Part shown: in pieces, positions 5,622 through 45,943 of the stretch | How positions within the stretch are numbered: position 1 is the stretch's first letter | How the letters are laid out: each line of letters starts with the position of its first letter | Source: Trigonopsis variabilis | Taxonomy: Eukaryota; Ascomycota; Trigonopsidomycetes; Trigonopsidales; Trigonopsidaceae | Reading direction: 5' to 3' | Length of the DNA stretch: 64,000 nucleotides | Assembly (NCBI GenBank): GCA_003707065.3 | Contig: PPXM03000012.1 | Span: forward strand, 309,927 to 373,926 | The notes under the pieces: generated by a model | The model's input: only the letters and a program-made list of their open reading frames with translations | Told to the model about the DNA's origin: nothing | Databases searched by the model: none | Made by a program: the position numbers and the translations under genes

Positions 5622-6643
5622 TTAAAAAATAGGCTCGCCAATTTTGAGTCCACGCTCCTCGACATCCTCGCGCTTGAAGATAGGTTCACCAATCTTGAGA
5701 CCTCGTTCTTCAATGTCTTCCCGTTTGAAAATGGGTTCACCAATCTTGAGTCCGCGCTCTTCGAGATCTTCACGCTTGAAGATGGGTTCGCCAATTTTGA
5801 GTCCACGCTCCTCGATATCCTCACGCTTAAAGATGGGTTCGCCAATTTTGAGTCCACGCTCTTCGAGGTCCTCACGCTTAAAGATAGGCTCTCCAATCTT
5901 TAGACCACGAGCCTCAACATCCTCTCTTTTGAAAATAGGTTCCCCAATCTTGAGACCTCGCTCTTCGAGATCTTCACGCTTAAAGATAGGCTCTCCAATC
6001 TTGAGTCCTCGTTCCTCAATGTCTTCACGCTTGAAGATGGGTTCCCCAATCTTAAGTCCACGTTCTTCGATATCCTCACGCTTGAAGATAGGCTCCCCAA
6101 TCTTGAGTCCTCGTTCCTCGAGGTCCTCGCGCTTAAAAATAGGCTCGCCAATCTTGAGTCCTCTCTCTTCGAGATCTTCCCGTTTGAAAATAGGCTCACC
6201 AATCTTTAGACCACGTTCTTCAATGTCTTCTCGCTTGAAGATGGGTTCCCCAATCTTGAGTCCACGCTCTTCAATGTCTTCTCGCTTAAAGATGGGTTCC
6301 CCAATTTTGAGTCCACGCTCCTCGATATCCTCACGCTTAAAGATGGGTTCGCCAATTTTGAGTCCACGCTCCTCGACATCCTCACGCTTAAAGATAGGTT
6401 CGCCAATTTTGAGTCCACGCTCTTCGAGGTCCTCACGCTTAAAGATAGGCTCTCCAATCTTTAGACCACGAGCCTCAACATCCTCACGCTTAAAAATAGG
6501 CTCCCCAATCTTAAGTCCACGCTCCTCAACGTCACTGAAAATTAATACTCTTATTGCTGCTTTACTCACGGGATAGGAGAAGCCACGGTGATATCAAAAA
6601 GAATAAATAAAGCAATAGACATAAAAGTAGCAGAGAATTTCAT
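5622..6643 (-). CDS. Secreted Kex2-processed repeat precursor, candidate alpha-factor-like mating pheromone
   Basis: A 328-residue precursor from two exons, 6570-6643 and 5622-6534, joined over a 35-nt intron (GTGAGT...TTTTCAG). Exon 1 encodes a clean signal peptide beginning MKFSATFMSIALFILF and ending near ITVASPIP. The rest is 18 tandem units of 17 residues: ED[VIL]E[EA]RGLKIGEPIFKR. Every unit but the last ends in KR, the Kex2 site; the last stops right after GEPIF, just as yeast MF-alpha1 ends in its last pheromone copy. The core GLKIGEPIF aligns with the C-terminal half of Saccharomyces alpha-factor (WHWLQLKPGQPMY): L-K-x-G-[E/Q]-P-[I/M]-[F/Y]. The acidic residues after KR take the place of the EAEA spacer. 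Units differ by many silent changes but almost no replacements. The exact mature ends are unknown. Alternatives are another Kex2-processed peptide or a ribosomal peptide natural product, but no UstYa-type oxidase lies nearby. Confidence 0.85.
5625..6533 (-). repeat. 51-bp coding tandem repeat, 18 units
   Basis: Seventeen full 51-bp units plus a final 42-bp unit, all in one frame of the precursor. Only two amino-acid positions vary (V/I/L and E/A), while third codon positions differ between units. The repeat is also open on the opposite strand, which is a composition effect. Confidence 0.95.
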
Positions 6644-13861: not shown

Positions 13862-14621
<760 letters not shown>

Positions 14622-14774
14622 CTTGGTCTTAGCGAGGTAAAGGGAAGAACGCTACGTTGCAATCCGATCCGTTCTAATTTAGGAAGGGCGTGTCCTTACT
14701 AGTTTCCACTTTCGACCCCAACCCAACTGGCGTTACAGGCTCGGTCATCATCCTACCCTCAATCCCTCTCTAAA

Positions 14775-20672: not shown

Positions 20673-21576
20673 ATGTCGAAGGTGACGATCGATGATATCA
20701 CGGTGTTAAATAACCCGGCGCCATTTACGGATCCGTATGAATTGGAAATTACATTTAAATGTCATGAGCCGTTAAAAGATGGTGAGCGTTGACCTGAGCT
20801 TGGAGCTAACAGGCAGACCTGGAGTGGAAACTAGTCTATGTTGGGTCCTCAACATCGTAGGTTCAGAGTCCTTACGCGGACTAACGATAGAAACAAACAT
20901 GATCAAGTCTTGGATTCAATTTTAGTCGGTCCAATACCGGTTGGAGTCAATAAGTTTCTGTTCTCTGCAGACGCTCCCTCTCCCGACTTGATTCCTGCAG
21001 CTGAGCTGGTCAGCGTGACAGTTATACTATTGACGTGCTCTTATCAAGATCGAGAGTTCGTCCGGGTGGGATATTATGTCAATAACGAATACGACAGCGA
21101 GGAGCTGCGGGATAATCCTCCCTCCAAGGTCCAGATAGATCATGTCGTGAGGAACATTCTAGCAGAGAAGCCGAGGGTTACTTATTTCAATATTAAATGG
21201 TGCGTCAATTTTACGCTTGGTCTAATTATACTAGGGACGACGAGGATGACGGGTTAGAGTATCCTCCTGAACAGCCGGATGCAGACGAAGGTAGGGCAAG
21301 CACCTCTTCATACTAACTCTCTTAGATGAAGAAGATGAAGACGAAGAAGAGGAAGAAGAAGAAGAGGACGAGAATGAGAATGAGAATGAGAATGATGGCC
21401 AAGACGAAGAAGAAGTAGAAAATGGGGAAGGCGACCAAGATCAAGATCAAGACCAGGCTGGAGAAGAAGAAGGAGAAGAAGAGGAAGACGAAGAGGACGA
21501 TGATACAGAAGTTGACCTTACCAAAGATCAGCTGGACGAGCCTGGATCGAAAAAGCAAAAGCTTAGTAACGATTAG
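20673..21576 (+). CDS. ASF1: Histone H3-H4 chaperone Asf1
   Basis: Delivers H3-H4 dimers for nucleosome assembly and disassembly in the nucleus. Five exons (20673-20781, 20817-20856, 20891-21199, 21235-21290, 21326-21576) with introns of only 35, 34, 35 and 35 nt; 254 residues. The conserved immunoglobulin-like core runs from [15 protein letters not shown] through [51 protein letters not shown] and [14 protein letters not shown], to the [17 protein letters not shown] block. After it comes a long Asp/Glu-rich tail with (EN)n and (DQ)n runs, as in yeast Asf1 (279 residues), which ends in a basic KKQKL patch. Each intron has CTAAC or similar close to the AG. Confidence 0.97.
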
Positions 21577-34138: not shown

Positions 34139-34288
34139 GACAGGAGACAGATCATTCATTTATTTGGGTATTTACGGTTCTATTATTCTAGTGTATTGTA
34201 TCAAGACTGCGTGGTAAATTGACAGCGTAGACCATGCCTGCTGGCACCTCGCTCGATGTAACGGTTGATGGGAACAAAGAGATAGACA

Positions 34289-35506
34289 ATGCCTTGTTTA
34301 GCGGACCATAAAGACCGCGGTCGAAAATGGATAAGGCAGCAACTTGACCGAATGAATGAAAACGTCTATGAAGATGGGCTCGTCACAGAGACAAGTCTGC
34401 TGCAGAATGATACGATGAAGGCGTGCTTGAACGAGCTGGCCAAGACGCCAGATCTGCCGCAAATCGACGAGGAGGCATTGGCGAGGTTCTTATTTTACGC
34501 ATTGGGTGAACTACCAGGAGCGTTTATTTCTCTAGATGCTTCGCGAGCGTGGATCGTCTATTGGGTCTTGAATTCGATGGCTTTATTTCCAGCTGGGCCG
34601 GTAAACCAAGCGATGGAGAGCATACGAGGACGGGTAGGAGACACAATTGGCGCGATGGAGAATAGCACGGGAGGGTTTGGAGGGAGTAATGGGCAGATAA
34701 GTCATTTAGCCACGACATATGCTAGTATAAATGCTTTAGCGGTGAGCGGGGGAGGAACGGTTAATAGAGAAAAGCTGAGAGAATGGATAGTGTCATTGAA
34801 GAGGAGCGATGGATCATTTCTCATGCACGATGGCGGGGAGAGCGATAGTCGGGCCAGCTACTGTGCTATTGCTGTTGCTTCACTGACTGGACTACTGGAC
34901 GAAGATATCTATGCAGGGACCATTGAATGGATCATTTCGTGTCAAACGTTTGAAGGGGGATTCGGCTCGAATCCGTACGCAGAAGCTCATGGGGGGTATA
35001 CGTTTTGTTGTCTGGCAGCATTGATGATTGTCAACCAGAGCAAGCCATTGGATATAAGGAAACTGATCAACGTTCCCCGTCTTCTCCACTGGCTAAGCGA
35101 GCGTCAGTTCGATCCAGAGGGAGGATTTTCGGGACGAACGAATAAATTAGTGGACGGCTGTTATAGTTGGTGGATAGGAGCTTCGATAGTCTTGATCCAG
35201 CTGTTCTTGGGGTCCCCTACTCTTTACGACGAGGGAGAATTACAGAGCTATATCCTGAGATGCTGTCAATCTCCCCGAGGTGGATTTGTCGATAAACCAG
35301 GTAAGCCCCCTGACTTCTATCATACCTGCTATGTACTGTCAGGGCTCTCTCTTACACTGACGAATTATTCAATGGTAAATAACAGGATAACCGCGTCTGA
35401 GAAACAAGATCAACCGATTCATATGACCTTGCTTCATCCTGCTCATGGTATACCTATGGAGGCTGTGGAGGATTTCAAGACGAGATGCAAATCAATGGAG
35501 ATATGA
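34289..35506 (+). CDS. RAM1: Protein farnesyltransferase beta subunit
   Basis: Catalytic zinc-binding subunit that farnesylates CaaX proteins such as Ras and the lipid-modified a-type pheromone. A 405-residue intronless protein with internal prenyltransferase repeats. Diagnostic blocks: GAFISLDASRAWIVYWVLNS, STGGFGGSNGQISHLATTYA, SDGSFLMHDGGESDSRASYC, FEGGFGSNPYAEAHGGYTFC, and GGFSGRTNKLVDGCYSWW with the zinc Asp and Cys. The late RGGFVDKPGKPPDFYHTCY block holds the zinc His. The full DKPGKxxDFYHTCY motif marks farnesyl- rather than geranylgeranyltransferase beta subunits. The ATG at 34289 gives a shorter N-terminus than yeast (431); an earlier ATG at 34233 is out of frame. Confidence 0.93.
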   Translation: MPCLADHKDRGRKWIRQQLDRMNENVYEDGLVTETSLLQNDTMKACLNELAKTPDLPQIDEEALARFLFYALGELPGAFISLDASRAWIVYWVLNSMALFPAGPVNQAMESIRGRVGDTIGAMENSTGGFGGSNGQISHLATTYASINALAVSGGGTVNREKLREWIVSLKRSDGSFLMHDGGESDSRASYCAIAVASLTGLLDEDIYAGTIEWIISCQTFEGGFGSNPYAEAHGGYTFCCLAALMIVNQSKPLDIRKLINVPRLLHWLSERQFDPEGGFSGRTNKLVDGCYSWWIGASIVLIQLFLGSPTLYDEGELQSYILRCCQSPRGGFVDKPGKPPDFYHTCYVLSGLSLTLTNYSMVNNRITASEKQDQPIHMTLLHPAHGIPMEAVEDFKTRCKSMEI

Positions 35507-45312: not shown

Positions 45313-45943
45313 ATGTATAATTCTGCTGGTGATAAGAGTATTCAACGGCGACGAGCCCTGCGGCCTCCTGCAAACTCCTCTTCAACCCGTCCTGCCGCCC
45401 CTCATGAGCTTACCGACGAGCAGAAGAATGAGATTAAGGAAGCTGTGAGTATATCCTGAGGCTATTGCCACTGTTGAGCATGACTGACTGGTTTCTTAGT
45501 TTAACTTGTTTGACATGGATAATGACGGCTGCTTAGATTATCACGAGCTAAAGGTGAGAGGAGCGCAGTATAGGACTGTGGACTGACTTGATTAGGTCGC
45601 CATGAGAGCTCTGGGATTCGACGCGCAGAAACCAGAGGTGCTGGCCATATTACGGGAGAATGACCGAGAAGGACTACGATTAATCACTTTTGAGGATTTC
45701 CAGCGGGTGATGGGAGAAAAGATCCTCGCCCGAGATCCTTTGGATGAAATTCGACGAGCCTTTGCCCTGTTTGATGAGGACAACACTGGTAAAATCAGTT
45801 TCAAGAACCTCAAGAAGGTGGCCAAGGAGCTGGGGGAGAACATTGACGACGAGGAACTACAGGCGATGATTGATGAGTTTGATCTTGACCAAGATGGAGA
45901 AATTAATGAAGAGGAATTCATCGCCATCTGTTCCGAACATTGA
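45313..45943 (+). CDS. CDC31: Centrin
   Basis: Calcium-binding EF-hand protein of the spindle pole body half-bridge, also in mRNA export and DNA repair complexes. Exons 45313-45444, 45500-45553 and 45596-45943 (introns 55 and 42 nt) give 177 residues. Four EF-hands: [18 protein letters not shown] has a full calcium loop, the second is degenerate ([14 protein letters not shown]), the third [14 protein letters not shown] and the fourth [16 protein letters not shown] are good. The basic N-terminus (RRRALRPP) is typical. The 54-nt middle exon codes for the first EF-hand loop alone. Confidence 0.96.

What the first reader, a model, noticed from the sequence alone, without database searches (positions are those of the whole stretch)
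5622..6643. Secreted precursor with 18 copies of an alpha-factor-like peptide
A signal peptide exon and 18 tandem 17-residue units, separated by KR Kex2 sites, give copies of GLKIGEPIF. The core matches the L-K-x-G-[Q/E]-P-[M/I]-[Y/F] end of Saccharomyces-type alpha-factor, and the last copy ends at the stop codon as in MF-alpha1. Yeast MF-alpha1 has four copies and most ascomycete precursors few, so 18 is exceptional. The N-terminal part of each unit (ED[VIL]E[EA]R) is not an EAEA Ste13 spacer, so its trimming would need a different peptidase or the mature peptide is longer (up to 15 residues). This could be an undescribed mating pheromone or other Kex2-processed signal.
Basis: partly seen in the sequence, partly recalled or inferred. 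Interest (0 to 1): 0.93.

Follow-up and report, generated by a model that had tools for sequence, protein, structure and literature searches.

The report
Fungal 18-copy secreted peptide precursor
A fungal gene encodes a probably secreted protein that would be cut into 18 small peptides with the same ending, an ending that resembles the yeast mating signal alpha-factor; it belongs to a widespread class of peptide precursors, and its exact job remains to be tested.

Summary
On the minus strand, 6643..5622, a predicted two-exon gene (35-nt intron) encodes 328 residues: a signal-peptide-like start, then 18 copies of D[VIL]E[EA]R-GLKIGEPIF joined by 17 KRE links, the last copy ending at the stop. 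The 9-residue core is identical in 18 of 18 copies although its codons differ: 57 of 57 departures from consensus are at third codon positions; pN is 0 against pS 0.65 over 153 pairs. The exact peptide is under selection. The gene fits the published repeat definition of a Kex2-processed repeat protein (KEP), a class with thousands of members. Its C-terminus matches S. cerevisiae alpha-factor better than chance (6 of 200,000 permutations and 0 of 12,806 window 9-mers as good, anchored). But the Ste13 signature, an N-terminal aromatic residue and a Pfam MF_alpha match are absent, and receptor, expression and relatives could not be examined. No DUF3328 hit among 87 window ORFs scanned. Best reading: a linear secreted signalling peptide, most likely alpha-pheromone-like (0.5). 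18 copies exceed the 1-16 reported for alpha pheromones but are ordinary for KEPs (3-129). Host: probably an ascomycete, subphylum unresolved.

The parts
6570..6643 (-). Exon 1: start codon and signal-peptide-like N-terminus (MKFSATFMSIALFILFDITVASPI + 2 bases)
   Evidence: mean hydropathy up to 2.79 over 10 residues; judged by eye, no signal-peptide predictor available
6535..6569 (-). 35-nt intron, GTGAGT ... TTAAT ... CAG (predicted)
   Evidence: 11 other introns selected in the window are 33-44 nt
5622..6534 (-). Exon 2: 18 repeat units and the TAA stop codon (5622-5624)
5625..6533 (-). Repeat array: 18 x D[VIL]E[EA]RGLKIGEPIF joined by 17 x KRE
6492..6518 (-). First copy of the core GLKIGEPIF
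5625..5651 (-). Last (18th) core copy, ends at the stop codon
6738..6743 (-). TATA-like box (TATATA) 100 nt upstream of the start codon
   Evidence: consensus match only

Best explanation
The gene encodes a Kex2-processed repeat precursor of a linear secreted signalling peptide, most likely an alpha-pheromone-like ligand. Inferred route: the signal peptide sends the protein into the ER; a Kex2-type protease cuts after each KR; a Kex1-type carboxypeptidase removes the K and R, leaving 15-residue peptides ED[VIL]E[EA]R-GLKIGEPIF (the last copy needs no trimming at its end). Either the 15-mer is active, or a second cut at the single arginine (ER|G) frees the 9-mer GLKIGEPIF. The GEPIF end would enter a Ste2/Mam2-class receptor as the alpha-factor C-terminus does. 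Shown: open frame, repeats, KR sites, selection on the exact core, resemblance of the C-terminus. Inferred: splicing, secretion, cutting, receptor and role.
For: Signal-like start, 17 KR links, 18 copies. Core fixed at protein level with free synonymous change, so the released peptide itself matters (strand control). C-terminus-anchored BLOSUM62 score 25 to S. cerevisiae alpha-factor: 6 of 200,000 permutations and 0 of 12,806 9-mers from 25 window ORFs score as high; G[QE]Px[FYW] occurs 0 times in those ORFs. The Fusarium circinatum alpha-pheromone also ends G-Q-P-x-aromatic (WCTWRGQPCW, PMC11124031 passage). The neighbours with Pfam hits look like housekeeping genes, with no DUF3328, P450 or tyrosinase hit in 87 window ORFs; in the survey none of 227 KEPs of alpha-mating-factor types had a DUF3328 gene nearby (PMC7329392 section 8).
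Against: No x-A or x-P Ste13 signature after any of the 17 KR. No N-terminal aromatic residue. No MF_alpha match. No long pro-region between signal and repeats. Without anchoring the likeness is weaker (28 of 40,000 permutations; 10 of 12,806 9-mers), and so it is to the second reference peptide (anchored 281 of 200,000 and 2 of 12,806; unanchored 318 of 40,000 and 35 of 12,806). KEPs without the Ste13 signature include Rep1, cyclic toxins and epichloecyclins (PMC6339444 discussion part 1). If the host is a Taphrina, only a potential Map3 receptor is mentioned for T. deformans (PMC6747714 passage), and the related Novakomyces olei is said to lack ste2 (PMC7912804 passage).
Confidence: 0.5

Rival explanations
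1. A linear KEP-derived peptide with a role other than mating: cell surface, hyphal development, or interaction with a host or other microbes. Processing is the same, but no Ste2-type receptor is involved.
For: In the survey 74% of KEPs were neither pheromone-annotated nor DUF3328-linked (PMC7329392 section 8). Absence of the Ste13 signature is shared with Rep1, whose peptides attach to hyphae (PMC6339444 discussion part 1). Knockouts of C. cinerea kep genes gave no detectable phenotype and the authors suggest a role towards the biotic environment (PMC9769878 abstract).
Against: The C-terminus matches alpha-factor better than chance. KEPs of Saccharomycetes are few (1.35 per strain) and mostly alpha-factors (PMC7329392 section 7), if the host belongs there.
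Confidence: 0.28
2. Precursor of a cyclised ribosomal peptide (dikaritin or epichloecyclin-like): after Kex2 release the core is cross-linked, for example through its C-terminal phenylalanine, by an oxidase encoded elsewhere in the genome.
For: Multi-core KR precursor without Ste13 signature. A review states that in victorin the ring joins a C-terminal phenylalanine to an internal leucine (PMC9233826 passage); this core has both residue types.
Against: No DUF3328 among 87 Pfam-scanned window ORFs; the HxxHC string of such proteins (motif recalled) occurs four times in six frames, each time alone. Where DUF3328 genes accompany KEPs they lie on average 3.09 genes away (PMC7329392 section 7), and the window reaches 57 kb on one side. 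No tyrosine, histidine or tryptophan in the core. But the other side ends after three genes (5.6 kb), and 116 of 166 leftover ORFs of 45 aa or more were not scanned.
Confidence: 0.17
3. Not an expressed gene: a relic or chance repeat.
For: No expression data. No relative in the viral or prokaryote contig collections, though these would not be expected to hold one.
Against: Open frame over 18 copies with purely synonymous core change, a fitting intron and a signal-like start.
Confidence: 0.04

Closest known systems
Kex2-processed repeat proteins (KEPs)
   Same: Signal-like N-terminus; at least 3 tandem repeats of at least 8 residues between KR sites, repeats not over 100 residues (PMC7329392 Methods passage); 9-24 aa is the commonest peptide size class in most Dikarya (PMC6339444 section 6)
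   Different: This core sequence was found in no held paper; supplementary KEP tables could not be read, so it may already be listed there
Saccharomyces alpha-factor precursor MFalpha1
   Same: KR-cut repeats, last copy at the stop (recalled), C-terminus LKxG[QE]P[MI][YF]
   Different: No EA/DA Ste13 spacer, no N-terminal Trp, no pro-region; 18 copies, against four as MFalpha1 is nearly always described, with variation (PMC5850478 passages)
Schizosaccharomyces pombe Map2 (P-factor)
   Same: Tandem copies in a secreted precursor; 4-8 copies in wild strains (PMC6342294 passages)
   Different: 23-residue peptides; its sequence was not compared here
Dikaritin precursors (ustiloxin and phomopsin type)
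   Same: Multi-core KR precursor without Ste13 signature
   Different: No DUF3328 gene seen nearby; no tyrosine in the core

Membership tests
Kex2-processed repeat proteins (KEPs) | >=3 tandem repeats of >=8 aa between KR/KK/RK/RR, none over 100 aa | tested here: met
   18 repeats of 17 aa, 17 KR links; definition from a PMC7329392 Methods passage
Kex2-processed repeat proteins (KEPs) | Signal peptide | tested here: inconclusive
   Basic start and hydrophobic stretch up to 2.79, judged by eye; no predictor run
Kex2-processed repeat proteins (KEPs) | Actual Kex2 cleavage and secretion | not testable with these tools
   needs mass spectrometry
Ascomycete alpha pheromone precursors | Ste13 x-A / x-P signature after the KR | tested here: not met
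   KR is followed by ED in 17 of 17 links; only the first copy is preceded by S-P, I-P
Ascomycete alpha pheromone precursors | Alpha-factor-like C-terminus | tested here: met
   anchored score 25; 6 of 200,000 permutations as good; weaker unanchored (28 of 40,000)
Ascomycete alpha pheromone precursors | Aromatic residue at the N-terminus of the mature peptide | tested here: not met
   neither GLKIGEPIF nor the 15-mer has one; as a family trait this is partly recalled, for S. cerevisiae from PMC8942848
Ascomycete alpha pheromone precursors | Pfam MF_alpha match | tested here: not met
   none listed at E<=5 for a 107-aa part and a 34-aa composite, nor at 0.001 for the 323-aa repeat ORF
Ascomycete alpha pheromone precursors | Cognate Ste2/Mam2 receptor | not testable with these tools
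   no genome held
Dikaritins (UstYa/DUF3328 RiPPs) | DUF3328 gene near the precursor gene | tested here: not met
   none in 87 Pfam-scanned window ORFs; only 5.6 kb visible on one side; 116 of 166 leftover ORFs not scanned; lists of two other proteins were capped at 25 families
Dikaritins (UstYa/DUF3328 RiPPs) | Side-chain cyclised product | not testable with these tools
   needs mass spectrometry

The most novel reading that the evidence does not exclude
An alpha-type pheromone that has kept the receptor-docking C-terminus of alpha-factor but lost the aromatic activating head and the Ste13 step, using instead an acidic spacer that is removed at a single arginine (or kept), and made in 18 copies. 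Its receptor would have to be switched on in a different way from Ste2 of baker's yeast, or the peptide would act as a natural blocker.
Probability: 0.25. Interest if true: 0.7.

Novelty: new member of a known kind. Interest (0 to 1): 0.42.

Why it matters
If it is a pheromone, it gives a simple, directly testable ligand, and it would show that the docking end of alpha-factor can be conserved while the activating end and its processing are replaced. If it is another kind of KEP peptide, it is a clean case with 18 fixed cores, well suited to mass spectrometry.

Tried and rejected
Relatives: scans with a 107-aa part of the precursor found none in viral contigs (51 pattern matches, 0 confirmed) or genome contigs (43, 0); blastn against plasmids gave no match. 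None of these is a collection of fungal genomes, so the absence means little. NCBIfam gave one chance hit (E 0.041, 14 bits against a cut-off of 250). Text search for the core and five shorter strings of it found one unrelated paper.

Pfam BHD_1 (Rad4 beta-hairpin) scores 72 bits on the repeat ORF, but the best stretch covers 11 residues and no stretch passes on its own; rejected as repeat inflation (26 bits on the 107-aa part, below the cut-off of 27).

Mating-type promoter element (recalled fission-yeast TR box): TTCTTTGTTY with one mismatch occurs twice within about 520 nt upstream (6835, 7151), but the window as a whole has 16 against 11.8 expected, and 15 of 100 shuffles reach 16; no weight given.

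Host lineage: GC 48.45% and short introns fit Taphrina (GC 47.3-48.9%, mean intron 48-51 nt, about 2 exons per gene; PMC4007546 passages). But the window's Asf1 exon scores 186 bits against budding-yeast Asf1, 155 against another fungal asf1, 140 against ASF1A and 124 against cia1, while budding-yeast Asf1 scores 163 against that other fungal asf1; this leans to budding yeasts. Unresolved. The tables show molecule names only; the species behind them are recalled. That the host is an ascomycete is itself inference (best hits of enolase, Rpt4 and Asf1 are budding-yeast chains).

Full report
The finding is real. Searches show, on the minus strand from 6643 to 5622, an ATG, a signal-like stretch, a 35-nt intron and a second exon with 18 copies of a 17-residue unit, ending in TAA. 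Without splicing the repeat frame has no ATG: the unspliced frame is bounded by a stop just above 6593 and holds no methionine. The intron is short, but the 12 introns that I chose from the window's candidates (this one included) span 33-44 nt, with branch-site-like motifs 5-10 nt from the 3' end in 11 of 12, so it looks normal for this genome. The candidate scan listed only 30-80 nt, so that census is biased to short introns, and none is confirmed by RNA.

The core GLKIGEPIF is identical in 18 of 18 copies. The DNA is not: over 153 pairs pS is 0.65 and pN is 0 in the core, against 0.85 and 0.09 in the D-x-E-x-R spacer. All 57 core differences from the consensus are at third positions; even the minimum of 11 independent changes would all be synonymous with probability about 7e-7. 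The plus strand is also open here for 316 codons, since its third positions coincide with those of the gene, but over the core it shows pN 0.066. So selection acts on the minus-strand peptide, and on the core more tightly than on the spacer. That fits a released 9-mer somewhat better than a 15-mer, though the spacer varies only among V/I/L and E/A.

Class. The gene fits the repeat definition of a KEP (PMC7329392: abstract, section 6 part 1 of 2, sections 7 and 8, and passages). That survey found 7,878 KEPs in 1,345 of 1,461 strains, of which 2,560 had no homologue. The copy number lies outside the 1-16 reported for alpha pheromones but within the KEP range 3-129 (PMC6339444: sections 6, 8, 9, part 1 of the discussion, and passages). 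In S. cerevisiae, output of alpha-factor stops rising at about six copies (PMC5850478 passages).

Function. With C-termini lined up, the likeness to S. cerevisiae alpha-factor is strong (6 of 200,000 permutations; 0 of 12,806 window 9-mers). It is moderate without the anchor (28 of 40,000; 10 of 12,806) and weaker against a second reference (anchored 281 of 200,000 and 2 of 12,806; unanchored 318 of 40,000 and 35 of 12,806). Structural work says that the C-terminus of alpha-factor engages the receptor first while Trp1 and Trp3 set efficacy; a peptide lacking Trp1 and with Trp3 changed is an antagonist (PMC8942848 passages). This peptide has the first part and lacks the second. Processing also differs: all 17 KR are followed by E-D, no Ste13 substrate; the only x-P pairs (S-P, I-P) lie just after the signal region before copy one. 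A cut at the single arginine before GLK would give the same 9-mer from all 18 copies, the first included; this is inference.

Surroundings. The neighbours with Pfam hits look like housekeeping genes: TFIIS, a fungal transcription factor, PrpD, a HAD hydrolase, Rpt4, a short-chain dehydrogenase, enolase, cyclophilin, F-actin capping beta, Scm3, Nop9, Asf1, an Lgl-type WD protein, Tsr3, GGA, GH47, Cdc24, farnesyltransferase beta, Nup98-96, V-ATPase subunit a and others. No DUF3328, tyrosinase or P450 family was listed for the 87 different window ORFs sent to Pfam (thresholds 0.001, 0.05 or 5 by call; two lists, of an AAA and a WD protein, were capped at 25). The limits are the left edge, 5.6 kb and three genes away, and 116 unscanned leftover ORFs of 45 aa or more.

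Limits. No fungal genome collection was at hand; expression, receptor, relatives and product were not examined. Host lineage is unresolved between Taphrina-like and budding-yeast signals. This matters: in Saccharomycetes most KEPs are alpha-factors, whereas for Taphrina deformans only a potential Map3 receptor is mentioned. That the core is not in print is claimed only, in open-licence papers, with no supplementary tables read.

Noticed in passing
5626-6576 (+): The strand opposite the repeat gene is also open for 316 codons, with repeats LK[IM]GSPIL; explained by coinciding third codon positions, and less conserved than the gene's own frame.
   Followed up: yes
5625-6593 (-): Pfam BHD_1 (Rad4) scores 72 bits, above its curated cut-off of 27, apparently through repeat inflation; automatic annotation could misname this gene.
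   Followed up: partly
13862-14651 (-): Secretory cyclophilin-like gene (at least two exons) whose last residues are KDEL; many fungi use HDEL (recalled).
   Followed up: no
20835-21254 (+): Asf1 exon is clearly closer to budding-yeast Asf1 (186 bits) than to cia1 (124 bits), at odds with the Taphrina-like intron and GC statistics.
   Followed up: partly
34286-35503 (+): Farnesyltransferase beta subunit, the enzyme type that modifies a-type pheromones (recalled), lies in the same window; probably coincidence.
   Followed up: no
45596-45940 (+): EF-hand protein exon beside the Nup98-96 gene (72.8 bits).
   Followed up: no
21324-21497 (+): Low-complexity AGA/GAG repeats upstream of the Lgl-type gene.
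   Followed up: no
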